Positions 6,064 to 52,962 of a stretch of DNA of 64,000 nucleotides are shown here, piece by piece. The notes below the pieces were generated by a model, which saw only the letters and a program-made list of their open reading frames with translations, did no database searches and was not told the DNA's origin. The translations under genes and the position numbers were made by a program. Numbering within the stretch: position 1 is the stretch's first letter; each line of letters opens with the position of its first letter. The stretch is from Neptunicoccus sediminis (GTDB lineage: Bacteria; Pseudomonadota; Alphaproteobacteria; Rhodobacterales; Rhodobacteraceae), in the NCBI RefSeq assembly GCF_001719615.1, contig NZ_MDVX01000001.1, forward strand, positions 62,001 through 126,000. The letters are read 5' to 3'.

Positions 6064-7278
6064 ATGACAGACGCACCGCCACCCCCCTTTCCAAAGCCCG
6101 CTGACGGCAATGCCGGTGAAGTGTTTGCGGTGTTCTTGAAACTTGGCCTGACCTCTTTTGGCGGGCCAATTGCCCATCTGGGGTATTTCCGTGACGAGTT
6201 GGTTACGCGGCGACAGTGGCTGACAGATGCGGATTACGCGGATCTGGTGGCGCTCTGCCAGTTCCTGCCCGGCCCTGCCTCCAGTCAGGTCGGCTTTGCC
6301 TTGGGTCTTATGCGGGCAGGATGGGCCGGAGCCTTTGCGGCCTTCGCCAGCTTCACCTTTCCATCGGTTTTTATCCTCTTCGCCTTCGCGCTGGGCGCTA
6401 CCGCCGTTTCCGGCCCGATCGGAAGTGGCGCATTGCACGGCTTGAAAATCGTCGCCGTGGCCATCGTCGCGCAGGCAGTCTGGGGCATGGCCCGCACGCT
6501 TTGTCCGGATCGCACCCGTGCCACTATTGCTGCGGGTGCAATCGGTATCCTCGCCCTGTTCTCCGGCGCGACCGCCATGGTCGCCGCCATCCTGTTTGGC
6601 GCGGTAGCAGGGCGCCTGTTCTGCCACGGCACGGCACGTTATGCGCCCGCGCCGCCCCTGCCGGTTTCGCGCACCGCAGCAGCATTTTGCCTGATCCTAG
6701 CTGTCGGGTTGCTGGCTCTGCTCCCCCTGCTCGCCCCGTTTTCCCCAAGCCTGAGTGTCTTTGACAGTTTCTACCGTTCTGGTTCCTTGGTGTTCGGCGG
6801 CGGCCATGTGGTGCTGCCCCTGCTGGAAGCCGAAGTGGTGCAAAGCGGACAGGTTTCGGCGGATGCGTTTCTGGCAGGCTATGGCGCAGCGCAGGCTGTG
6901 CCCGGTCCGCTGTTCACCTTTGCGGCCTATCTCGGCGCTGTACTTGACAGCGAACCAAACGGCATAACCGGCGCAACACTGGCGCAAACTGCGCTGTTTT
7001 TGCCCGGATTTCTCCTACTGACAGGTGTGCTCCCCTTCTGGCAGAGCCTGCGGAACACCCCAAGCGTGCAAAGCCTGATGCAAGGGGCGAACGCAGCGGT
7101 GGTCGGTATATTGGGGGCCGCACTTTATTCACCTGTTTTTACCAGCGCCATCGGCGGAATGCCGGATTTGGCGCTGGCGGTCGGCTGCTTCGTTCTGCTG
7201 ATGGCCTGGAAGACACCGCCTTGGGCCGTTGTAATGCTTGCGGCCGGTGGTGGTGTGCTTCTTAACCTCGCGGGCTAA
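6064..7278 (+). CDS. chrA: Chromate transporter, ChrA family
   Basis: This 404-residue polytopic inner-membrane protein carries the two repeated CHR domains of long-chain ChrA proteins. The first repeat has TSFGGPIAHLGYFRDELV near residue 31 with QFLPGPASSQ further on; the second has FGGGHVVLPLLEAE and QAVPGPLFTFA. These are the pore-lining motifs known from chromate efflux carriers, which exchange chromate against sulfate. The start at MTDAPPPPF has a weak GAGAT upstream; a longer frame begins at 6010 inside the ugd terminator and is rejected. It is a lone gene, convergent with the methyltransferase. Substrate assignment rests on the family only. Confidence 0.9.
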   Translation: MTDAPPPPFPKPADGNAGEVFAVFLKLGLTSFGGPIAHLGYFRDELVTRRQWLTDADYADLVALCQFLPGPASSQVGFALGLMRAGWAGAFAAFASFTFPSVFILFAFALGATAVSGPIGSGALHGLKIVAVAIVAQAVWGMARTLCPDRTRATIAAGAIGILALFSGATAMVAAILFGAVAGRLFCHGTARYAPAPPLPVSRTAAAFCLILAVGLLALLPLLAPFSPSLSVFDSFYRSGSLVFGGGHVVLPLLEAEVVQSGQVSADAFLAGYGAAQAVPGPLFTFAAYLGAVLDSEPNGITGATLAQTALFLPGFLLLTGVLPFWQSLRNTPSVQSLMQGANAAVVGILGAALYSPVFTSAIGGMPDLALAVGCFVLLMAWKTPPWAVVMLAAGGGVLLNLAG

Positions 7279-42921: not shown

Positions 42922-43001
42922 TCAATCCCTCAATATCGGACAGAATGTCAATGGAATCGTAAGATTCTTGTTACGCGGGTTGTGGGGAATCAGGAGTAAC
43001 C

Positions 43002-43328
43002 ATGTTTGAAGCGGAAGCTAAATTCACAATCGGGCAAGTCGTTCGCCATCGTAAGCATCCCTTCCGGGGTGTGATCTTTGACGTCGATCCCACATTCTCG
43101 AATACCGAGGAGTGGTGGGAGAGCATTCCCGAGGACAACCGTCCCAAAAAGGAGCAGCCTTTCTACCATTTGCTGGCAGAAAATGACTCTTCCTATTATG
43201 TGGCTTATGTGTCCGAACAAAATCTAGAAACCGATCCGACCGGTGCGCCGGTGGACCATCCAGAAGTGATCGCAATGTTCGGAGAGCTGAACAACGGTCA
43301 GTACCGGCTTGAGGTTCAACTGAACTGA
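43002..43328 (+). CDS. hspQ: Heat shock protein HspQ
   Basis: This is a 108-residue protein with the HspQ (hemimethylated-DNA-binding YccV) domain: AKFTIGQVVRHRKHPFRGVI at residues 6-25, VDPTF, EEWW, then KEQPFYHLLAENDSSYYVAYVSEQNL. The family binds hemimethylated DNA and, in enterobacteria, modulates Lon-dependent proteolysis. AGGAG lies 7 nt before the ATG. It is divergent from the AEC gene. It is followed by a 390-bp non-coding region with the large inverted repeat and the 14-bp repeat element. Confidence 0.92.
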   Translation: MFEAEAKFTIGQVVRHRKHPFRGVIFDVDPTFSNTEEWWESIPEDNRPKKEQPFYHLLAENDSSYYVAYVSEQNLETDPTGAPVDHPEVIAMFGELNNGQYRLEVQLN

Positions 43329-43411
43329 GCCATCCGCCGGAACGGGACGGCCCGTCCGTCCAAGGCTGAGGCCGATGCGCCCGCCTTACCAGTCAGGATG
43401 CCGATAACCGC

Positions 43412-43559
43412 AGGATTTTAACACCAATGCGGTTTAACATTCCAAGACCAACATGCAGCAAAACCGCCATGCCTTCCAGTTTACTGGCAGGTCAGGCGGC
43501 TTTTGCTGTTGGTCCGGTCTGGTGCAGGTTCCAAGACCTTGGGAATGTTGTAAAATCCG
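43412..43559. repeat. Imperfect ~150-bp inverted repeat
   Basis: The inner stem pairs AGCAAAACCGCC (43457-43468) with GGCGGCTTTTGCT (43495-43507). Further out, GACCAAC (43446-43452) pairs with GTTGGTC (43508-43514), AACATTCC (43436-43443) with GGGAATGTT, and GGATTTTA (43413-43420) with TAAAATCC (43551-43558). A small CCAGT/ACTGG hairpin sits at the tip. The arms carry unequal insertions. It may be a degenerate non-autonomous mobile element or a structured transcript. Confidence 0.6.
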
Positions 43560-43561
43560 GA

Positions 43562-43633
43562 TTATCACCCTGCATATATGAAGCGTCTTAAATGAAGCTT
43601 CATATATGAAGCTTCATAATTGCAGGGTCATAA
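43562..43633. repeat. 14-bp repeat element, copy A (three units)
   Basis: Inverted ends TTATCACCCTGCA (43562-43574) and TGCAGGGTCATAA (43621-43633) differ at one position when paired. Between them lie a 3-nt spacer, then three abutting 14-bp units at 43578-43591, 43592-43605 and 43606-43619 (consensus ATGAAGCTTCATAA), and a 1-nt spacer T. Each unit carries a palindromic GAAGCTTC or a variant. The design is the same as in copy B at 51228-51338. Confidence 0.8.
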
Positions 43634-43718
43634 AACGGCGCACCCCGCAGATATTCCGCGCAGGCCGATAGGTCAGCCAGTTATCCGGCAGGCCGTCGTC
43701 TTGCAAAACCTCCCAACT

Positions 43719-45299
43719 TCAATAACCGAGCGCGCATCCGTCTTTGCGTGGATCGGACCCGCCTTCCAGAACGCCGGTTTCGGGGTTGATCACAATTGCC
43801 TGCGCCCCACCAATAGCGACATCAGGGGTGACAATGTCATGCCCCATCGCCATCAGGTCCTGTCGCAGATTTGCGCCATATCCCCGTTCCAGTTGCAGTT
43901 TTCCATCGGCTGCAAAGCTGCGCGGCGCGTCGATTGCTTCTTGCACCGACATCCCGTAATCCACCATGTTCGACACCAGCCGCGTGTGCCCTGTGGACTG
44001 GTACTGCCCGCCCATCACCCCGAACGGCATGATAACCTTACCGCCCTTGCGCAGCATCGCCGGAATGATCGTGTGCATCGGCCGCTTGCCCCCGCCGGCT
44101 TCATTGGGATGGCCCGCCTCCAGAGAGAACCCCGAGCCGCGGTTCTGAAAATTGATCCCGAATTTGTCAGAGGCCAGCCCCGCCCCGAAGGAATGGAACA
44201 CCGAATAAATCAGCGAAACGGCCATTCTGTCCCGATCGACCACAGTCAGATAGACCGTTTCCTTATGCACGCTTTCCGAGACCACGGTGGCCGAGGGCAT
44301 GGCTTTGTGCGGGTCAATTAGCCCTGCCAGTTTCGCCGCAGTCTCTGCCAAGGTCATATAGTCCAAGCGGTCCATATAATCCGGATCTGCCAGAAAACGG
44401 TTGCGGGTATCATAGGCCAGTTTGGTGGCTTCCGCCTCTATATGAACCCGCTGGGAACTGAGCGCACCATAAGCAGGCATGTCGAAATGGGACAGGATGT
44501 TTGCCAGCAGGATTGCCGTTGCCCCCTGCCCGTTGGGGCGATGCTCGACCAGTTCCACATCCTTATAGGTGCCGCTGATCGGGTCGGTATAGTCGCAGGC
44601 GGTCGCTGCAAAATCATCCAGCGTATGCACTCCGCCCAGCGCGTTCAAAGAGGCGACCATATCTTCGGCCACTTCGCCTTCGTAAAACCCGTCCCGCCCT
44701 TCCAGCGCCACACGCTCCAGCACTTCTGCCTGATCGGGCGCGCGGAAAATCTGTCCCGGGGTTGGTGCTTTTCCATCCAGAAGGTAGAAATCCCGTGCCG
44801 CACCTTGCAGGAAATCTGCCGCGCGGTGCCAGTCAAAACAGGTGCGTGGTGCCAGCGGGACACCGGCACGGGCGTAATGGATGGCTGGGGCAAGGGACGC
44901 CTTCAGTCCCAGCTTGCCATAGTCTTGCGACAACCGGCAAAACGCATCAATCGCGCCGGGAACCGTCACCGCCGCCGCATCGTGCAGCGGCATGGTCTTA
45001 TGCCCCGCCGCCCGCAGCTTCTCAGCCTCAAGCGCGGCCGGTGCGCGTCCCGATCCGTTCAGTGCCACAACCTCTTCGCTGCCCGCAGGTTTGAGCAAGA
45101 CAAAGCAATCGCCGCCGATGCCGGTCATTTGCGGTTCACACACCCCCAGCAAAACGCCCGCGGCAATCGCCGCATCCACCGCATTGCCGCCCGCCTCCAG
45201 CATCTGCACCGCAACCTTAGCCGCCAGCGGGGTGGATGTGGCACACATGCCGTTTACTGCAAATACCGGAGAGCGTCCGGGCAGGTGAAAGTCGCGCAT
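43719..45299 (-). CDS. Gamma-glutamyltransferase family protein
   Basis: This 526-residue Ntn-hydrolase precursor should cleave itself at the catalytic threonine. That residue is probably the T of KETVYLTVVDRDRMAVSL, which aligns with TTHFSVVD of classical GGT. The N-terminal part has ATSTPLAAKVAVQMLEAGGNAVDAAIA, and the C-terminal half contains MGGQYQSTGHTRLV and a GYGANL segment near the end. GGTs hydrolyse glutathione or transfer its glutamyl group. There is no signal peptide, so this one should be cytosolic, as in the YwrD-like branch. The start at 45299 is used; a structured 598-bp region lies upstream. Confidence 0.88.
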   Translation of the reverse strand: MRDFHLPGRSPVFAVNGMCATSTPLAAKVAVQMLEAGGNAVDAAIAAGVLLGVCEPQMTGIGGDCFVLLKPAGSEEVVALNGSGRAPAALEAEKLRAAGHKTMPLHDAAAVTVPGAIDAFCRLSQDYGKLGLKASLAPAIHYARAGVPLAPRTCFDWHRAADFLQGAARDFYLLDGKAPTPGQIFRAPDQAEVLERVALEGRDGFYEGEVAEDMVASLNALGGVHTLDDFAATACDYTDPISGTYKDVELVEHRPNGQGATAILLANILSHFDMPAYGALSSQRVHIEAEATKLAYDTRNRFLADPDYMDRLDYMTLAETAAKLAGLIDPHKAMPSATVVSESVHKETVYLTVVDRDRMAVSLIYSVFHSFGAGLASDKFGINFQNRGSGFSLEAGHPNEAGGGKRPMHTIIPAMLRKGGKVIMPFGVMGGQYQSTGHTRLVSNMVDYGMSVQEAIDAPRSFAADGKLQLERGYGANLRQDLMAMGHDIVTPDVAIGGAQAIVINPETGVLEGGSDPRKDGCALGY

Positions 45300-45494
45300 T
45301 AATTATGGTCCCCTCTGGCGCGGGTCGGATCCTGTCACACAGCCGCGCAAATATATCTGTCCCCCGCAGACAACAGGGAATGGTTTGCGCCTAAAGAACT
45401 ACAGCAGGCCAGAAAGGGCAAACGTAAAATTAACATCGCATAAACCTGCCGGAAAAGACCGCGCGAATCTGCCGTGTATGATTGGGGGGATAGG

Positions 45495-45547
45495 GCCCCG
45501 ACGCAGCACCCATGGGTGGGGGCTGATATGAGTGCTGCGTCAGGGGC
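45495..45547. other. Strong hairpin upstream of GGT gene
   Basis: GCCCCGACGCAGCAC (45495-45509) pairs with GTGCTGCGTC-a-GGGGC (45532-45547), 15 bp with one bulged base, around a 22-nt loop rich in G and C. No T run follows on either strand. It may lie in a long 5' leader of the GGT gene. Confidence 0.6.
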
Positions 45548-45696
45548 AAGCATTGTTTCAGCTATGAGATAAGTTTCACCCGCGATCTGGGCGAAGAAAG
45601 GGAGGGAATGCGGCAAGAATAAGGTTTTTCGCGATAGCCCCGATCGGGGCGTTCTGCTGCACTGGCACACTTCACCAGATGAGAGCCTGCCAAAAT

Positions 45697-45744
45697 GAAA
45701 AAACCCCGACCGAGACGCCAGTACGCGGCGGTCTCGTCGGGGTT
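45697..45744 (-). terminator. Minus-strand intrinsic terminator with no annotated gene before it
   Basis: The arms AACCCCGA-CGAGAC and GTCTCG-TCGGGGTT pair with one bulge; on the minus strand the hairpin is followed by TTTTTT. The nearest gene upstream on that strand ends beyond 46250 and the DUF2794 gene is on the other strand. The terminator should therefore end an unannotated transcript starting between about 45750 and 46200. Confidence 0.75.
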
Positions 45745-45897
45745 GGTACTCGTTACTCACTATACGCGTAGGGCCTTTATGCCCCGTGACCTTGACAATT
45801 CTGTGCACGGATTGGGGCATTTCAGCGGTGTTTTAGCGCCCTATTTCCGGCAAGAAAGACGCTTGCCATTCACGGTTGTGCGGACCAAACTCTTTAC

Positions 45898-46245
45898 ATG
45901 AACATGCACACAGTCACTTCGCTCTCTTCTCGTCGTATAGACGGGGAAAAGATCCACTTCCACCGGACGGAGCTTGGCCCCATCATGTCCCTTTACGGAC
46001 GGATGGTTGCCGCCGGTGAATGGCGCGATTATGGGATTTCGGCGCTAAAGGATGTGGCGATCTTTTGCGTTTTCCGGCGCAGCGCGGAACATGCGCTCTA
46101 CCGGATTGAAAAGCGCCCCAAACTGGCGGCGAAACAGGGGATGTATGCGATCATCGGCATGGACGGGCGCGTTCTGAAGCGGGGCCATGACCTGAAGGCG
46201 GTGCTGCGCGTGCTGGAACGCAAATTGATCCGCACCGTAGACTAG
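45898..46245 (+). CDS. DUF2794 domain-containing protein
   Basis: This is a 115-residue protein of an alphaproteobacterial family of unknown function. The core IHFHRTELGPIMSLYGRMVA (residues 19-38), GEWRDYGISALKD and the C-terminal VLKRGHDLKAVLRVLERKL are family hallmarks. It has no signal peptide or membrane segment. The start codon ATG at 45898 lacks a clear Shine-Dalgarno; a second ATG at 45904 is possible. It is convergent with the NlpC/P60 gene, with a 6-nt gap. Confidence 0.88.
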   Translation: MNMHTVTSLSSRRIDGEKIHFHRTELGPIMSLYGRMVAAGEWRDYGISALKDVAIFCVFRRSAEHALYRIEKRPKLAAKQGMYAIIGMDGRVLKRGHDLKAVLRVLERKLIRTVD

Positions 46246-46251
46246 GCCCGC

Positions 46252-47073
46252 TCAGGGACGGCGATAGGCGCTGACCTTGCGGCTTTCCGCGTCCCTGATC
46301 CGTTCGGCCACCAGCGCAAGCGGCTCTACCGTAGTGCACATATGATGCCCGTTTGCGTGGATCAGTTGTTGCGCATCCAGCATCATCCCCACATGCCCCT
46401 TCCAGAACACAAGGTCCCCCCGTTGCAGTGCTGCGCCCTTTGGCACTACATCAAAGAACGCTTCCTGCTGGTCGCTGTCGCGGGGACAGTCCCGACCGGC
46501 GGCGCGCAGCGCGGCATGGACCAGACCGGAACAATCAATCCCGAGGCTGCTGTCCCCGCCCCATAAATAAGGCACGCCCAGAAAGCGCAGCGCGGTTTCG
46601 GCTGCGTCTGTGGTGACAGCGTCAATCGCGCCAACCTGCTGGTCCGGCACAAATCCCTGCGGCGTCTTCCAGAAACCGTCTTGTCGGTCCGAACAGGTCA
46701 GAAAACTGTCAAACGGCAGCGTCAGGGCCGGAATGGTCTTTATCGACCGTGTCGGGTAAAGATGCGCACCGAAGGTTCGGACGCGATGGGTGGGCGCCTC
46801 CATCGCGCACAGATGGGCGGCGTTTATATACCCCACATATCCCGAAGGCTCGGCAAAACCGAAGGCGTAACCCTGACGGGTTTCCAGCACACAGAAGCGC
46901 TCTCCGTAGACAAGCTGCCGGTCCAGCGCCCCCTCTGGCGCGGCCAGAATATCGGCCACCGGAACCTGAACGGTCAACAGATCACCGTCAGTCAGGGGAA
47001 CCTCCCCCACCTGACCGGAGAGACTTCTATGGGCCACCCGCCCGTTGCTGCGCCAGAGGCGTCGATCGCTCAT
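46252..47073 (-). CDS. NlpC/P60 family cysteine peptidase
   Basis: This is a 273-residue protein. An N-terminal SH3-like part (GEVPLTDGDLLTV, VLETRQGYAFGFAEPSGYVGYI) is followed by the NlpC/P60 domain. The catalytic cysteine is in LGIDCSGLVHAAL near residue 173, the histidine in HVGMMLD and a third polar residue in LIHANGHH. These enzymes cleave stem peptides of peptidoglycan, usually D-gamma-Glu-diaminopimelate bonds. No export signal is evident, so it may recycle muropeptides in the cytosol. The start at 47073 overlaps the leucyl aminopeptidase stop by 4 nt, giving a coupled pair of peptide-cleaving enzymes. Confidence 0.9.
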   Translation of the reverse strand: MSDRRLWRSNGRVAHRSLSGQVGEVPLTDGDLLTVQVPVADILAAPEGALDRQLVYGERFCVLETRQGYAFGFAEPSGYVGYINAAHLCAMEAPTHRVRTFGAHLYPTRSIKTIPALTLPFDSFLTCSDRQDGFWKTPQGFVPDQQVGAIDAVTTDAAETALRFLGVPYLWGGDSSLGIDCSGLVHAALRAAGRDCPRDSDQQEAFFDVVPKGAALQRGDLVFWKGHVGMMLDAQQLIHANGHHMCTTVEPLALVAERIRDAESRKVSAYRRP

Positions 47074-48455
47074 GTCGTGATCCGCTGCTCGATGACTTCC
47101 AGCATGGCGCGGGCAGACTGGCAGGCCCCGCCAAGCGTGCGGCCCGCTTTGGGCGCAGGGGTCCACCCGTAGATGTCCAGATGCACGAAACGGTCGGTCT
47201 GTTCAACGAAGCGGCGCAGGAACAGCGCCGCGGTGATTGATCCGCCAAACCCGCCTTTGGGTGCATTATCAAGATCGGCAACATCCGGTTCGATCATAGG
47301 CTCGTAAGCATCCCAGAACGGCATCCGCCACAGCGGGTCTTCTACTTTGGCGCCGCAGTCGGACATCTGGGCAGCCAGCGTATCGTCCTCTGTATAAAAC
47401 GGCATCAGATCCGGCCCGAGAGCCACGCGCGCAGCGCCAGTCAGGGTTGCCTTGCACACCAGCAGATCGGGTTCTTCCTCATCCGCAAGGGTCAGCGCAT
47501 CGGCCAGCACCAGACGACCTTCGGCATCGGTGTTGTTGATCTCGACGCTCAGCCCTTTACGCGACATCAGAATATCCTGCGGGCGATAGGCCCCGGCCGA
47601 GATTGAGTTTTCCACTGCTGGCACCAGCACGCGAAGGCGCACAGGCAGGTCCAGCGCCATGATCATTTTGGCAAGCCCCAGAACCGTCGCCGCGCCGCCC
47701 ATATCCTTTTTCATCAGCCCCATTGATCCGGCCGGTTTGATGTTCAGACCACCCGTGTCAAAACAAACGCCCTTCCCAACAAGCGTGATCTTGGGCGCGC
47801 TTTCATCGCCCCAGATCATATCCAGCAGGCGGGGTGCCTGATCAGACGCGCGCCCGACCGTGTGGATCATCGGGAAATTCTGCGCCAGCAGGTCATCGCC
47901 GCGAATGACTGCGGTTTTCGCTTTGTAGGCTTGCGCCAGTTCCAGAAAGGCGGCTTCCAGACCGTCCGGCCCCATGTCCGACGCAGGGGTGTTGATCAGA
48001 TCGCGGGTCAGGGCGTCTCCGGCGGCGATGGCTTCCAGCCGCGCCGCATCCACGCCTTCAGGCGCGACCAGCGCGGCCTTCGGCGCAGGTTTTTTCTTGT
48101 AGCGGTCAAACACATATCCGCCCAGCAACCACGCCAGCGCCGCTTGGGTTTTTTCGGCACCAGTCAGCCCTGAGGCCAATGTAAAAACCCCTTCGGGCAA
48201 TTGTGCCGCAACTGCACCCATATGCAAGCGGTCCCGCTTGCGTTGGGTTTCCGTGCCCCACCCCACCAGAACACGGCCCAGACCATTCTCACCGGGAACT
48301 GTCAAAACCTGACCGAGCTTGCCATTAAAACCGTTGGCTTTGGCCCAAGCTACTGTGCCTTTCGGGGCATGTTCTTTGAAATGGGACAGCCCTTTCGTTG
48401 AAATCACATCAACCGGAATTGCAGTTTCGGAAGCGGTGGCGAATTTGGGTGACAT
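47070..48455 (-). CDS. M17 family leucyl aminopeptidase
   Basis: This 461-residue cytosolic aminopeptidase has the M17 metal and active-site segments GKGVCFDTGGLNIKPAGSM near residue 232, MKKDMGGAATVLG and the hallmark NNTDAEGRLVLADALT near residue 313. It removes N-terminal residues from peptides with two metal ions. The start codon at 48455 is used. It forms an operon with the NlpC/P60 gene (4-nt overlap), suggesting joint breakdown of muropeptides or peptides. Confidence 0.92.
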   Translation of the reverse strand: MSPKFATASETAIPVDVISTKGLSHFKEHAPKGTVAWAKANGFNGKLGQVLTVPGENGLGRVLVGWGTETQRKRDRLHMGAVAAQLPEGVFTLASGLTGAEKTQAALAWLLGGYVFDRYKKKPAPKAALVAPEGVDAARLEAIAAGDALTRDLINTPASDMGPDGLEAAFLELAQAYKAKTAVIRGDDLLAQNFPMIHTVGRASDQAPRLLDMIWGDESAPKITLVGKGVCFDTGGLNIKPAGSMGLMKKDMGGAATVLGLAKMIMALDLPVRLRVLVPAVENSISAGAYRPQDILMSRKGLSVEINNTDAEGRLVLADALTLADEEEPDLLVCKATLTGAARVALGPDLMPFYTEDDTLAAQMSDCGAKVEDPLWRMPFWDAYEPMIEPDVADLDNAPKGGFGGSITAALFLRRFVEQTDRFVHLDIYGWTPAPKAGRTLGGACQSARAMLEVIEQRITT

Positions 48456-48541
48456 GGGAACTCCTTCAGATTCCCGCGCAGCCTACACCCAAAGCGAAGC
48501 GCTTTGAAACGGGATAATCGGAAAGGACAAGGGCGTTCCTA

Positions 48542-49912
48542 TCAGTCGTTTGGCAGCGGATTGCTTGGCACCGCCCCCGACAGAATACTGACATCGCGGC
48601 GCGGGAAAGGAATTTCGATGTTGTTTTCATCCAGCACATCCCAAAGGGCCAGAAACACATCCCCGCGCACATTTGTCAGACCTGCCGTGCTGTCCCTGAT
48701 CCAGAACCGCAGGGTGAAATCAATCGAACTGTCCCCGAAATTCACGATGTGACAGACCGGTTTGGGGATCGGCACCACACGGGACACCGACAGGGGGGCT
48801 TCGGAGGCGAGTTTTTTCACCTCATGGGGGTTGCTGTCATAGGACACACCGAAATTGATCTCCAGCCGCACCAGATCAGAAGAATGGGACCAGTTGATCA
48901 CCTGACTGGTGATGAAGTCCTCATTCGGGATCAGATATTCGCGCCCGTCCCGTGTCAGCACGCTGGCATAGCGGGCGCCAAGTTGGGTGATCCAGCCAAA
49001 TGTCCCGTCGAGCGAGATCACATCCCCCGGTTTAATGGATTTATCCAGCAGGATGATTACACCGGACACAAGGTTGGAAACAATCTTTTGCAGGCCAAAC
49101 CCGATCCCCAGACCAATCGCACCGGAAAGAATTGCCAGATTTCCGATGTCAAATCCGACCACCCGCAGGCCGATCAGGAAGGCAATGGTATAGAGCATCA
49201 GTTGCAGGGCTTTGTTCAGCAGCACACGGATCGAGGGGGACATATCCTCGACCTTGTTGATGCGCTGCGATCCTGCTTTGGATAGAAAGCTGGCCACCAC
49301 AAACAAGGTTGCAAGGGACACAATTGCGATCAGGACGGTGAGCAGGGACACCCGCGTCCCGCCCGTTTCCAGCGCGATGGAATCCAGCGCATTGGCGGCG
49401 TTTTCGCGCAGGCCAAAGATGGTCAGCACCACAAAGATACCCGCCGCCCAGCGCACCAGTTTACGCACCGGGCGCGAACGGATCAGCCGTGTTGAAACCA
49501 CAAGGACCAACCACCAGAGCGCAAGTGTCGCCGCCAGAGCAATAAAGTAAGAGCGGCTCGGCCATGTGATCTCGCGCATGACGAAAACCGTCGCCCAGGA
49601 CATCAGAACAAAAACAAGCAGCCACAGACGCTGGTTCAACACTGCGCAGATGCGCAGGACCCATTTCGGTAAACCGTGGGATTCCCCGAGAAATTCGCGC
49701 ACGCGGGGGCGGTAGTAGCGGTAGATCCCGTAAGACACTATTGCAAGCACGAGGATTATGGCAAGTTGATAGCCGCTCCACGGTTGGGTCAGACGGTTGA
49801 TCAGACGCTCGCCCATATCAAGCAGAAGGACCGACTGCTCTGTGAGGGTTGGCAAGGCTTTTATTGCCTCGTCAATGATGGCAACCGGCTCGGTTCCTGT
49901 GTCTTCGGCCAA
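48542..49912 (-). CDS. Mechanosensitive ion channel, MscS family (shorter form)
   Basis: This is a 456-residue inner-membrane channel. Several helices precede the MscS pore helix (ILSGAIGLGIGFGLQKIVSNLVSG near residue 275), then the beta domain with DKSIKPGDVISLDGTFGWI and YLIPNEDFITSQVINWS. It resembles the larger channel at 14143-16479 only in the pore and beta domain. It probably releases solutes on osmotic shock. The start at 49912 has no strong Shine-Dalgarno. It is divergent from the DUF1176 gene. Confidence 0.9.
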   Translation of the reverse strand: MAEDTGTEPVAIIDEAIKALPTLTEQSVLLLDMGERLINRLTQPWSGYQLAIILVLAIVSYGIYRYYRPRVREFLGESHGLPKWVLRICAVLNQRLWLLVFVLMSWATVFVMREITWPSRSYFIALAATLALWWLVLVVSTRLIRSRPVRKLVRWAAGIFVVLTIFGLRENAANALDSIALETGGTRVSLLTVLIAIVSLATLFVVASFLSKAGSQRINKVEDMSPSIRVLLNKALQLMLYTIAFLIGLRVVGFDIGNLAILSGAIGLGIGFGLQKIVSNLVSGVIILLDKSIKPGDVISLDGTFGWITQLGARYASVLTRDGREYLIPNEDFITSQVINWSHSSDLVRLEINFGVSYDSNPHEVKKLASEAPLSVSRVVPIPKPVCHIVNFGDSSIDFTLRFWIRDSTAGLTNVRGDVFLALWDVLDENNIEIPFPRRDVSILSGAVPSNPLPND

Positions 49913-49930
49913 ATAAAATCCCCTGCTGTA

Positions 49931-49949
49931 ATCCTGTTGGTTACAGGAT
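49931..49949. promoter_or_regulatory. Small inverted repeat upstream of MscS
   Basis: ATCCTGT and ACAGGAT pair across TGGTT, 19 nt before the MscS start codon in the divergent gap. It may be an operator or an RNA hairpin; nothing further can be said. Confidence 0.3.
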
Positions 49950-50050
49950 ATACATATTGCGAATTTTTATAAGGGAAATGATTGCCCGTCTGTTAGCACT
50001 GGTTGCAGGGACAGTCATCCGCGCCCTGAACAGATCGTTAAGGAGATCTC

Positions 50051-51196
50051 ATGTACCGTATTCTGCGCCTTGTGAGCGTGCTTGCCGTGTTGGGCCAAAC
50101 GGCCTCTGCGCAGGAGCTGGGCCAGTCCATGCGGCAGTGGTGGGTGGAATGTGACAGCCACGGGGATTGTAGCGCCGACATCGACGGCTTCACCGCAGAT
50201 TATGAAACGCTTACCCTGCGATTGCTGCGCGACGGGACGGCGGGCAGCGCGATCCTGCTAGAATTGACGCCGGAGTCGCTGATTGGCACAGGCACCGCTA
50301 TCCGGTTTGACATCCCGAACGTGGCCGAGGGGATCAGCCGCAAGGTCGGACCTGTGAGTAACAACAGCTTTACCCTGCCAGAGCCGGTGGACAGCCCGCT
50401 TCTGCACGGGATCATGACGGGAGAGACCCTGTTCGTGACCATAGATTTTCCAAATGCACGGGGCGTTCAGGTATTTGAAGTGCCGCTGGCAGGAGCAATC
50501 GATTCACTGACGGTTATGGATATTGTCCAGCAACGTCTGGGCCGCAAAGATGCCATCGTCGCACGGGGTGCAGCACCAATGGACAGCCCGTCAGACGTTT
50601 TCCCACGGCACCACGCAGGCATTGGAGATGCGGATAGCGGGCATTGGGCAGGGTCCGACACAATCGACGCGCCGACCGAGGAAGGTCCGAACGGGTCCTA
50701 TATAGATGTCATCTACACGCCTGCCGACATGCCCGCAGCGGTTCTGGATTTTGGCCGCGCGGAGCCGGATTGCGGCGATCCCACCGGTCCCTTGAATGAA
50801 ATGGGGACAATTGTGAACAGGGACCAGACCGGACGCACCACCTATCTGGTGCCCTGCCGGATCGGTCCTGCCAATGTCAGTTACTTTGTTGTGATGCAGG
50901 ACCCCGACAAGGGCGGCGAGTATACATTGCAGCGTTTCGAACTGCCCCCTGGCCATAACGCGCCGGACCGTACACGGATTATGAACCCGCAATGGCTGGC
51001 CGAACGGAACCGTCTTCTCTCAACCCGCTATGGTGACATGAACCTGAACTGCGGGACCTATGAAGTTCACGACTGGAACGCGCAGCAGCAGCGCTTTGAG
51101 CTGACGAGCTACAGGGCAAAGGAAGATTGCAGCGGTCCCCATGTCGAGCCGCAGAAGTTTCCGCTGGAATGGACCCTATCCGAGATGGGCCAGTAA
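50051..51196 (+). CDS. DUF1176 domain-containing periplasmic protein
   Basis: This 381-residue protein has a signal peptide at residues 1 to about 20 (ends ASAQ before ELGQS). Weakly conserved family features are WWVECDSHGDCS near residue 30, a TTYLVPCRIGPANVSYFVVM core near residue 265 and C-terminal YRAKEDCSG. Four or more cysteines suggest disulfides in the periplasm. The function of DUF1176 is unknown. AAGGAG lies just before the ATG, a strong ribosome site. Copy B of the 14-bp repeat element lies immediately downstream. Confidence 0.82.
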   Translation: MYRILRLVSVLAVLGQTASAQELGQSMRQWWVECDSHGDCSADIDGFTADYETLTLRLLRDGTAGSAILLELTPESLIGTGTAIRFDIPNVAEGISRKVGPVSNNSFTLPEPVDSPLLHGIMTGETLFVTIDFPNARGVQVFEVPLAGAIDSLTVMDIVQQRLGRKDAIVARGAAPMDSPSDVFPRHHAGIGDADSGHWAGSDTIDAPTEEGPNGSYIDVIYTPADMPAAVLDFGRAEPDCGDPTGPLNEMGTIVNRDQTGRTTYLVPCRIGPANVSYFVVMQDPDKGGEYTLQRFELPPGHNAPDRTRIMNPQWLAERNRLLSTRYGDMNLNCGTYEVHDWNAQQQRFELTSYRAKEDCSGPHVEPQKFPLEWTLSEMGQ

Positions 51197-51227
51197 CGCG
51201 AAACGCGCTTGAGGCCGGTCTTTGGCC

Positions 51228-51338
51228 ATCACCCTGCAGGTAAGAAGCTTCTTATATGAAGCTTCATTTATGAAGCGTCTAATATCACGCGTCTTGTATC
51301 ACGCTTCATTTATGACGCTTCATATTTGCAGGGTGATA
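51228..51338. repeat. 14-bp repeat element, copy B (six units)
   Basis: Perfect inverted ends ATCACCCTGCA (51228-51238) and TGCAGGGTGAT (51327-51337) enclose a 3-nt spacer, six abutting 14-bp units (51242 to 51325, exactly 84 bp) and a 1-nt spacer T. Unit 2 is ATGAAGCTTCATTT; units 4-6 drift to ATCACGC and ATGACGC forms. The phase is kept without a single indel across all six units. The architecture is the same as copy A. Confidence 0.85.
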
Positions 51339-51443
51339 CCCCGGCCTGCCCGCAGCCAGACGACTCAGCACTTGCGAGACTACGCACTTCGGTCTATTCC
51401 AACGCAGTATGACACACAGATTCACAATGGATGACCGCTCCCG

Positions 51444-51469
51444 CCTGCCGTGGCGTTTCCACGGACAGG
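51444..51469 (+). terminator. Hairpin in leuC leader
   Basis: CCTG-CCGTGG pairs with CCACGG-a-CAGG and is followed by TTGTTCTG, a weak T run, 84 nt before leuC. It lies inside a 24-codon frame (51428-51502) with three Leu codons, so attenuation is conceivable but unproven. Confidence 0.3.
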
Positions 51470-51552
51470 TTGTTCTGCGCATCCAGGGGCTATCCGCGTA
51501 ATTTTCTACGCTCGCCAACTCCAATAGCCAATCTACATAGCGGGAGGATCAA

Positions 51553-52962
51553 ATGTCCGCACCTAAAACACTCTATGATAAAATCTGGGATGCCCACGTC
51601 GCCCATGAAGCCGATGACGGCACTTGCTTGCTGTATATCGACCGTCACCTTGTCCACGAAGTGACATCCCCCCAAGCGTTTGAAGGCCTGCGTCTTGCAG
51701 GCCGTACCGTGCGCGCGCCGGAAAAAACCATTGCCGTGCCGGATCACAACGTACCAACCACGCTGGACCGCGCCAATGCGGAAACCATGACCGAGGACAG
51801 CCGCATTCAGGTTGAAGCGCTGGACACCAACGCCAAGGAATTTGGCCTGCACTATTACCCTGTGTCTGATGTCCGTCAGGGGATCGTGCATATTGTCGGA
51901 CCGGAACAGGGCTGGACCCTGCCGGGCATGACCGTGGTTTGCGGCGACAGCCACACGGCCACCCACGGCGCCTTTGGTGCGCTGGCTCACGGCATCGGCA
52001 CCTCAGAGGTGGAACACGTTCTGGCAACGCAAACGCTGATCCAGAAGAAATCCAAGAACATGAAGGTGGAAATCACCGGTTCCTTGCGTCCGGGTGTGAC
52101 TGCCAAAGACATCACCATGTGTGTGATCGGGGAAACCGGCACGGCTGGCGGCACCGGCTATGTGATCGAATATTGTGGTCAGGCCATCCGCGAACTGTCG
52201 ATGGAAGGGCGTATGACCGTCTGTAACATGGCTATCGAGGGCGGCGCCCGCGCCGGCCTGATCGCACCGGATGAAACCACATTCGAATACTGCAAAGGTC
52301 GCCCCCACGCCCCGAAAGGTGCCCAATGGGAAATGGCTGTAGAGGCTTGGAAAGAGCTTTACACCGACGAAGGCGCCCATTTTGACAAGATCATCACCAT
52401 CAAAGGTGAAGACATCGCGCCTTCCGTCACTTGGGGCACCTCCCCCGAGGATGTGCTGCCGATCACAGCGACCGTCCCAAGCCCCGAAGACTTTCAGGGC
52501 GGCAAGGTAGACGCAGTGCGCCGCGCACTGGACTACATGGGGCTGGAACCCGGCATGAAACTGTCGGATGTCGAAATCGACACCGTATTTATCGGGTCTT
52601 GCACCAACGGGCGGATCGAAGACCTGCGCGCTGCAGCAGAGGTGCTGAAAGGCAAGAAGGTCAAGGACGGGATGCGGGCGATGGTTGTGCCGGGCTCCGG
52701 TCTGGTGCGCGCGCAAGCCGAAGAAGAAGGTCTGGCACAGATCTTCATCGACGCGGGCTTTGAATGGCGTATGGCCGGTTGTTCCATGTGTCTTGCGATG
52801 AACCCGGATCAACTGTCCGAAGGCGAACGCTGCGCGTCCACCTCCAACCGCAACTTTGAAGGCCGTCAGGGTTACAAAGGCCGCACCCACCTTCTGTCCC
52901 CTGCTATGGCTGCTGCGGCTGCTGTGACAGGCAAACTGACAGACATCCGCGATCTGGTGTAA
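51553..52962 (+). CDS. leuC: 3-isopropylmalate dehydratase large subunit
   Basis: This 469-residue subunit of the leucine pathway isomerase converts 2- to 3-isopropylmalate with LeuD. The three [4Fe-4S] cysteines are C350 ([11 protein letters not shown]), C410 and C413 (CSMC). Other aconitase-family segments are [22 protein letters not shown] and [10 protein letters not shown] near the end. GGGAGGATC lies before the ATG. It is 12 nt before leuD. The other pathway gene, leuB, is about 4 kb downstream. Confidence 0.96.

What the first reader, a model, noticed from the sequence alone, without database searches (positions are those of the whole stretch)
51228..51338. A 14-bp palindromic tandem array closed by inverted ends, six units, repeated elsewhere in the window
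Seen directly: six 14-bp units with no indel (84 bp) lie between ATCACCCTGCA and TGCAGGGTGAT, with spacers of 3 and 1 nt. The same layout with three units occurs at 43562-43633. Each unit centres on an AGCTT/GCGTC/GCTTC-type dyad, and units 4-6 drift to ATCACGC and ATGACGC forms. Two copies with the same ends, spacers and period but different unit number suggest a defined element rather than random low-complexity DNA. It could be a binding array whose copy number changes, a mobile repeat, or a structured transcript end. I know of no described family like it.
Basis: seen in the sequence. Interest (0 to 1): 0.78.

Follow-up and report, generated by a model that had tools for sequence, protein, structure and literature searches.

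The report
Dispersed palindromic repeat arrays between genes
A marine bacterium and its close relatives carry a few dozen short DNA arrays, built from a 14-letter palindrome repeated one to seven times and set between genes, mostly at gene ends; they look like docking arrays for an unknown DNA-binding protein and match no repeat family that we could find.

Summary
Window 51228-51337 has six exact 14-bp units between inverted caps; 43564-43631 has three. They belong to a family: 31 elements extracted in this genome, 23, 25 and 25 in three relatives, some in a partial fourth. Of 392 sampled genomes outside the genus only 4 had a match, one each, unopened. Elements have 1-7 units with core GA(A/C)GC(T/G)TC, lie outside called genes, and are enriched between convergent genes (17 of 31 against 7 of 73 other gaps). 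Sites are inherited (26 of 31 shared with a relative) while unit number drifts (different in 13 of 23, 11 of 24, 13 of 21 site pairs). In one relative units are mostly GACGCGTC and 25 of 40 ends carry TTAA-N7-TTAA, the published CtrA full-site layout. Constraint is concentrated at A5, G7, C8 and T10. Unit order and end pairing are not optimised for one long hairpin, end classes assort as if independent, no RAYT transposase was found, and no clean empty site was seen. Best reading: arrays of palindromic protein-binding sites acting as boundaries or anchors at gene ends; the protein is unidentified. RNA hairpin and BOX-like mobile repeat remain rivals. New variant of a known kind.

The parts
51228..51238 (+). 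left cap ATCACCCTGCA of the six-unit element (class A end)
51241..51324 (.). six contiguous 14-bp units, cores GAAGCTTC, GAAGCTTC, GAAGCGTC, CACGCGTC, CACGCTTC, GACGCTTC
51325..51338 (-). right cap TTTGCAGGGTGATA; in register it reads as a degenerate unit (core GCAGGGTG)
43564..43574 (+). left cap ATCACCCTGCA of the three-unit element
43577..43618 (.). three contiguous 14-bp units; same site occupied in the G002 relative (2 units) and the G012 relative (3 units)
43619..43631 (-). right cap ATTGCAGGGTCAT of the three-unit element
43002..43328 (+). YccV-like gene (HspQ-type by recall), convergent neighbour of the three-unit element
43719..45299 (-). gamma-glutamyltranspeptidase gene, convergent neighbour
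50051..51196 (+). DUF1176 gene ending 31 bp before the six-unit element
51553..52962 (+). aconitase-family gene (leuC-like by recall), 215 bp downstream

Best explanation
The elements are DNA-level docking arrays. Each 14-bp unit is a palindromic site (two inverted heptads) with core GA(A/C)GC(T/G)TC for a clade-specific dimeric DNA-binding protein that loads side by side on 1-7 units. Degenerate cap units or TTAA-containing ends close the array; in the G020 relative the ends have the layout of CtrA full sites. Placed between genes, above all between convergent genes, the protein-DNA complex most likely acts as a boundary: a two-way transcription roadblock, a nucleoid anchor, or both. SHOWN: the family, its sites, the constrained core, inherited positions, drifting unit number, 3'-end bias, the CtrA-type end layout in one species. 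INFERRED: the protein, cooperative binding, the boundary function.
For: Constraint is on specific bases: among 157 internal units, mismatches fall at position 4 (25) and 11 (24) but at 5 (2), 7 (1), 8 (0) and 10 (0), although the scan treated these six positions alike; over 355 units position 6 is A or C in 354 and position 9 T or G in 353. Transitions at 6 and 9, which G-U pairing would tolerate, are almost absent. Permuting unit order lowers neither self-complementarity nor RNA folding. End classes combine about as if independent. Units of one element are no more alike than units of different elements (10.16 against 10.21 of 14 in G000), so the consensus is not just recent local duplication. 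A species-wide change of the commonest unit core (GAAGCTTC in G000, G002 and G012; GACGCGTC in G020) fits a co-evolving trans factor. Elements are intergenic and convergent-biased; 45 of 62 neighbouring gene ends facing a G000 element are stop ends. In G020, 25 of 40 ends hold TTAA-N7-TTAA with at most 1 mismatch, against 0 to 4 of 40 for other spacers of 3-11, and 37 of 4000 random intergenic 26-mers of the window (the control is from G000).
Against: No binding protein was identified. Genes whose starts face an element show no regulon theme. Within-unit symmetry is no greater than with half units shuffled among units (0.783 against 0.771, sd 0.010, in G000; no excess in the others), and coupling of positions 6 and 9 is weak (Fisher p 0.08, 0.16, 0.78, 0.02). 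Spacing is not strictly 14: three elements (L059, L183 near 6672, L186) have 12- or 13-bp steps. At the 43564 site both outer arms differ together between species (TTATCACCC/GGGTCATAA against TCAAGACCC/GGGTCTTGA), which looks like pairing. 3'-end bias is also normal for selfish repeats (PMC3049150, passages). The CtrA layout is rare in the G000 clade (4 of 62, 5 of 46, 5 of 48 ends).
Confidence: 0.45

Rival explanations
1. RNA-level 3' hairpins: units are transcribed from one or both flanking genes and fold into stable hairpins that end or protect the mRNA, as proposed for REPs.
For: Very stable folds: z -9.2 and -10.4 for the six-unit copy, -8.2 and -7.9 for the three-unit copy. 3'-end and convergent bias. 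Linked changes in both arms at the 43564 site. Two odd-spaced elements look near-symmetrical as whole palindromes (L059, L183 near 6672). A variant two-core element at one place in each of G002 and G012 reads as a hairpin followed by a T run, like an intrinsic terminator (L235, L234).
Against: No better folding than with units permuted or right ends swapped in any of 4 genomes and 2 strands (elements with 3 or more units: 28 of 31, 16 of 23, 18 of 24, 13 of 20). Caveat: palindromic units fold in any order, so this tests whole-array pairing and not hairpins as such. Core bases A5, G7, C8 and T10 show almost no substitution, compensated or not. 16 of 31 G000 elements do not have two class A ends. 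No terminator-like site at either window copy.
Confidence: 0.25
2. A BOX-like, non-autonomous mobile repeat: end modules recognised by a transposase bracket a variable number of internal modules; it spread in an ancestor and now sits where insertion does least harm.
For: Modular end-(unit)n-end architecture, dispersed, intergenic, convergent-biased, like pneumococcal BOX (PMC3049150, passages). 5 of 31 G000 and 16 of 20 tested G020 elements have no partner site among the elements of the other genomes. A recurring cap-plus-first-unit module at different loci: 37 of 98 first units read inward from an A cap are TATGAAGCGTCATA (orthologous copies counted apart).
Against: All 23 G002 and all 24 tested G012 elements share their site with another species, so no sign of recent spread there. 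No Y1_Tnp in the 5 array-bearing genomes (G028 only 72% complete); the 5 genomes that have it have no tandem-unit match. Lineage-specific elements come with larger differences and not clean joins: 51228 (152-158 bp against 25-33), L113 near 14449 (274 against 54 bp in G002, 248 against 29 in G012), two in L183 (about 726 against 30 and 2060 against 60 bp in G000). No match in plasmids, phages or viral contigs.
Confidence: 0.2
3. Inert, drifting tandem-repeat remnants at gene ends with no present function; the core is kept by gene conversion between copies.
For: Unit number and end details change between species; gene context is heterogeneous.
Against: Position-specific constraint within units and retention of elements at inherited sites.
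Confidence: 0.1

Closest known systems
BOX elements (boxA-boxBn-boxC, Streptococcus pneumoniae; PMC3049150, passages read)
   Same: end modules around a variable number of tandem internal modules; dispersed; over-represented between convergent genes; length differs between genomes at one site
   Different: BOX are 67-637 bp in the source; these units are 14-bp palindromes with a conserved core, in Rhodobacterales; ends here are short (11-18 bp), two classes look like degenerate units, and the classes mix freely
REPs, GTAG and CGTC superfamilies (PMC3733652; abstract, two sections and passages read)
   Same: short intergenic palindromes, convergent and 3'-end bias, alphaproteobacterial members, clade-specific
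   Different: CGTC REPs have 8-9 bp stems with 4-5 nt loops and mostly head-head dimers; here 14-bp loopless palindromes stand head to tail in register with caps
Omega/ParB heptad arrays, parS of plasmid pSM19035 (PMC9499535, passages read)
   Same: arrays of contiguous 7-bp sites in direct or inverted order, bound by side-by-side protein dimers; repeat number matters
   Different: that heptad is WATCACW on a plasmid; here inverted heptads make 14-bp units at some 30 dispersed chromosomal sites; no protein known
CtrA full site TTAA-N7-TTAA (PMC6180460, passages read)
   Same: class C ends in G020 have this layout at 25 of 40 ends
   Different: the CtrA sites described there act at promoters; here they bracket an array, inverted to each other, often at gene ends; rare in the window's clade
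Dispersed nucleoid sites such as Noc, SlmA or MatP sites (recalled)
   Same: palindromes spread round the chromosome; the 25 found in G020 do not depart from even spread (KS p 0.89)
   Different: those are single sites (recalled); these are arrays with variable unit number and a gene-end bias

Membership tests
REP (CGTC superfamily) | stem of 8-9 bp with a 4-5 nt loop and an unpaired CGTC head | tested here: not met
   units are loopless 14-bp palindromes in register; the consensus figure of PMC3733652 was not seen, only its text
REP (CGTC superfamily) | mostly head-head dimers, rarely tandem | tested here: not met
   1-7 head-to-tail units
REP with RAYT | Y1 transposase (PF01797) in the genome | tested here: not met
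   0 of 5 array-bearing genomes, one of them 72% complete; the abstract says CGTC REPs lack a dedicated transposase, so this bears on GTAG REPs only
REP (general) | intergenic, between convergent or same-direction genes | tested here: met
   28 of 31 in G000, 22 of 25 in G020
BOX | two distinct end modules around a variable number of tandem middle modules | tested here: inconclusive
   layout met; ends are not a fixed pair but mix classes A, B and C
BOX | sequence similarity to boxA/B/C | not tested
   box sequences were not fetched
MITE | terminal inverted repeats | tested here: inconclusive
   15 of 31 G000 elements have class A ends on both sides, 16 do not
MITE | target-site duplication or clean empty site | tested here: not met
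   four lineage-specific elements looked at, none clean; others were not examined
Intrinsic terminator | GC-rich hairpin followed by a T run | tested here: not met
   none found around either window copy; a variant element in G002 and G012 does have a hairpin plus T run (by eye)
Described RNA family | Rfam match | tested here: not met
   no match up to E = 1 in window 43000-52500
CtrA sites | TTAA-N7-TTAA | tested here: inconclusive
   25 of 40 ends in G020 with at most 1 mismatch; only 4 of 62, 5 of 46 and 5 of 48 in G000, G002 and G012
CtrA sites | bound by CtrA in vivo | not testable with these tools
   no binding data
Cooperative RHH/ParB heptad arrays | contiguous 7-bp sites bound by adjacent dimers | not testable with these tools
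   inverted-heptad layout seen; protein unknown

The most novel reading that the evidence does not exclude
A clade-specific chromosomal boundary system: a few dozen gene-end sites where a palindrome-binding protein stacks on 1-7 units between two inverted CtrA-type boxes, so that a cell-cycle regulator gates a chain of DNA-bound dimers that insulates convergent genes or anchors the nucleoid. In the window's clade the CtrA boxes were largely replaced by degenerate cap units.
Probability: 0.12. Interest if true: 0.85.

Novelty: new variant of a known kind. Interest (0 to 1): 0.55.

Why it matters
If these are binding arrays, they give a natural series of 1-7 near-identical sites at matched loci in sister species, in which unit number, end type and neighbouring genes can be related to transcription across gene ends. 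The species-wide change of unit (GACGCGTC against GAAGCTTC) would be a record of a protein and its sites changing together. If they turn out to be transcript hairpins or mobile repeats, they still add a repeat type with inherited positions and fast-changing length, usable for typing in this clade.

Tried and rejected
CRISPR-like array: units are contiguous with no spacers. Rfam: nothing. RAYT-moved REP: PF01797 not found in the 5 array genomes. Plasmid, phage or viral element: no match. Regulon of one transcription factor: the 17 start-facing G000 genes (16) share no theme. One long hairpin as the selected unit: permutation and end-swap tests negative. Single-unit C-C form in genus members: one weak match, 2 mismatches, in G006, against 4 genomes with a control match. 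Ter- or ori-restricted sites: the 25 positions in G020 do not differ from uniform (ori and ter were not located). Paper searches without a description.

Dropped rows and limits: onward uses 31, 23, 24, 20 and 2 elements (G000, G002, G012, G020, G028); two partial pieces were dropped (first piece of L186, L059 at 935). Some pattern listings were capped, so I checked coverage: the extracted elements hold 89 of 90 tandem-unit places in G000, 46 of 47 in G002, 57 of 60 in G012, 27 of 35 in G020 and 3 of 15 in G028. A 25th G012 element (L233, 3 units) and a variant hairpin at one place each in G012 and G002 (L234, L235) were fetched afterwards and are in none of the tests. Five further G020 elements (loci) entered only; the matches in L225 and L193 gave no element. 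Elements with one unit and no class A or B end can be missed. Genes were called by my own codon-score script. The first two end classifications left or misfiled some ends and were replaced. The non-element gap counts (7 of 73, 3 of 34) were got by subtraction. The 4 single matches outside the genus were not opened.

Full report
OBSERVATION. The 11-bp end occurs 24 times in the genome against 1 for a reversed control; 22 of the 24 run into 14-bp units. A pattern for two adjacent unit cores (at most 1 mismatch) occurs at 90 places against 0.

FAMILY AND RANGE. Extraction gave 31 elements in the window's genome (G000), 23 in G002, 24 plus one later (25) in G012, 25 in G020 (20 used in most tests) and 2 in G028, which is 72% complete and hardly sampled. 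The extracted sets cover 89 of 90, 46 of 47, 57 of 60, 27 of 35 and 3 of 15 tandem-unit places (the G020 figure is for its 20 tested elements). Tandem-unit matches are many in 5 of 33 genomes of the genus (90, 47, 60, 35, 15), with single matches in 5 more, while the reversed control gives 1 or 2 in 5 genomes. In a sample of 394 family genomes (2 of the genus, 392 outside), only this genome and four single matches outside the genus came up (those four not opened). A stricter pattern over genome contigs gave 39 stretches; 34 were in Amylibacter cionae m18, Rhodobacteraceae P03SST1bin.12 and an uncultured Amylibacter, and 5 in other organisms held no array. A. cionae is now listed as Neptunicoccus cionae. 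No viral, phage or plasmid match.

ANATOMY. Unit: T-A-T-G-A-M-G-C-K-T-C-A-T-A, two inverted heptads. Over 355 units, position 5 is A in 353, 7 G in 354, 8 C in 354, 10 T in 355, 6 A or C in 354, and 9 T or G in 353. Within-unit symmetry is no greater than with half units shuffled among units, so the palindrome follows from the two half consensuses and not from covariation. Ends come in three classes: A (TTTGCAGGGTSWT), B (TATGCAGTATGTTAA) and C (GTTAASSNTTTGTTAAGG). By my count A and B match unit forms seen in the arrays (TATGAAGCGTCTTA, TATGAAGCGTGTTA) at 11 of 14 positions in register, so they look like degenerate cap units; all 121 caps with GCAG in register have T at position 10. In G000 the pairings are AA 15, AC 6, AB 5, BC 4, AX 1, against 14.2, 6.8, 6.1, 1.5 and 0.7 expected if ends were independent; G002 (7, 7, 5, 4) and G012 (10, 5, 4, 4, 1) behave alike. 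BB and CC pairs are absent and BC is somewhat in excess; numbers are small.

G020. There the commonest core is GACGCGTC (31 of 65 units; positions 6/9 are C/G in 54 of 65) and most elements have C-type ends. 25 of 40 ends carry TTAA-N7-TTAA with at most one mismatch; other spacers from 3 to 11 give 0 to 4; random intergenic 26-mers of the window give 37 of 4000 (the control is from G000, not G020). This is the full-site layout of CtrA as described in PMC6180460 (passages). A few G020 elements are instead of the GAAGCTTC type with GCAG ends.

POSITION. No element lies inside a called gene (0 of 31, 0 of 25). The single 'INSIDE' row is L072 near 5298 in G028, a lone core match and not an array. 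In G000, 17 elements are convergent, 11 same-direction and 3 divergent; convergent 17 of 31 against 7 of 73 other gaps, Fisher p 2e-6. In G020 10 of 25 against 3 of 34, p 0.009. 45 of 62 flanking gene ends facing a G000 element are stop ends. Start-facing genes have no common theme.

EVOLUTION. By flank matching, 26 of 31 G000, 23 of 23 G002 and 24 of 24 tested G012 elements share their site with another species; only 4 of 20 in G020. Unit number differs in 13 of 23, 11 of 24 and 13 of 21 pairs. The three-unit window element is shared with G002 (2 units) and G012 (3), with changes in both outer arms. The six-unit element is absent from both relatives, where 25-33 bp stand in place of 152-158, but the 20-30 bp next to it do not align either, so it is not a clean empty site. 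Three other lineage-specific elements, seen in two further searches, also lack clean joins. Units of one element are no more alike than units of different elements (G000 10.16 against 10.21; G002 9.64 against 10.40; G012 10.33 against 10.31; G020 9.20 against 9.32).

STRUCTURE TESTS. The strands fold very well against shuffled sequence. But real arrays are no more self-complementary than arrays with permuted units (p 0.71, 0.20, 0.35, 0.53), and fold no better than with permuted units or swapped right ends (16 Wilcoxon tests, lowest p 0.065 and in the other direction). This does not exclude local hairpins, since palindromic units fold in any order; it removes the argument that the whole element is kept as one hairpin. 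One variant two-core element in G002 and G012 does read as a hairpin with a T run, which favours a transcript role at that site.

MECHANISM. Base-specific constraint, tolerance of A to C but hardly of A to G at position 6, free unit order, free end pairing, and a species-wide change of unit point to recognition by a protein. Gene-end placement without a regulon theme points to a boundary or anchor role and not promoter control. I put this at 0.45, RNA hairpins at 0.25, a BOX-like mobile repeat at 0.20, and no present function at 0.10; the late facts did not move these.

COMPARISON. The layout resembles BOX (PMC3049150) and heptad arrays of omega/ParB (PMC9499535). It is not a CGTC REP by stem, loop and arrangement as told in the text of PMC3733652, and no RAYT was found. 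I file it as a new variant of the known kind 'small interspersed intergenic repeat', with an untested claim to be a binding array.

Noticed in passing
window about 43460-43515: An inverted repeat (AAAACCGCC ... GGCGGCTTTTGC) between the YccV-like gene and the three-unit array is also largely present in G002 and G012; probably a separate hairpin of the upstream gene.
   Followed up: no
L059 about 920-990 (G028), L183 about 6650-6735 and L186 about 2456-2530 (G020): Three elements with 12- or 13-bp steps between cores and not only 14; two look nearly symmetrical as whole palindromes.
   Followed up: partly
L234 near 1036 (G012) and L235 near 1068 (G002): A variant with two facing cores and a T run after the second, like an intrinsic terminator, apparently at the same site in both genomes.
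   Followed up: no
G020 loci L174-L193 and L224-L229: Two subfamilies in one genome: GACGCGTC arrays with TTAA-N7-TTAA ends, and a few GAAGCTTC arrays with GCAG ends.
   Followed up: partly
L183 1929-2656 and 4874-6935 (G020): Lineage-specific elements of G020 lie in larger stretches (0.7 and 2 kb) missing from G000, so element gain or loss may go with gene gain or loss.
   Followed up: no
window 51208-51227 and 51338-51350: The six-unit element is bracketed outside its caps by GGCCGG / CCGGCC, a further inverted match not seen in the relatives.
   Followed up: no
L107 4641 (G000), L144 7981 (G002), L166 7934 (G012): One of the few divergent-promoter elements is kept in three species between a lyase gene and an alpha/beta hydrolase gene, with 3 units in all.
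   Followed up: partly
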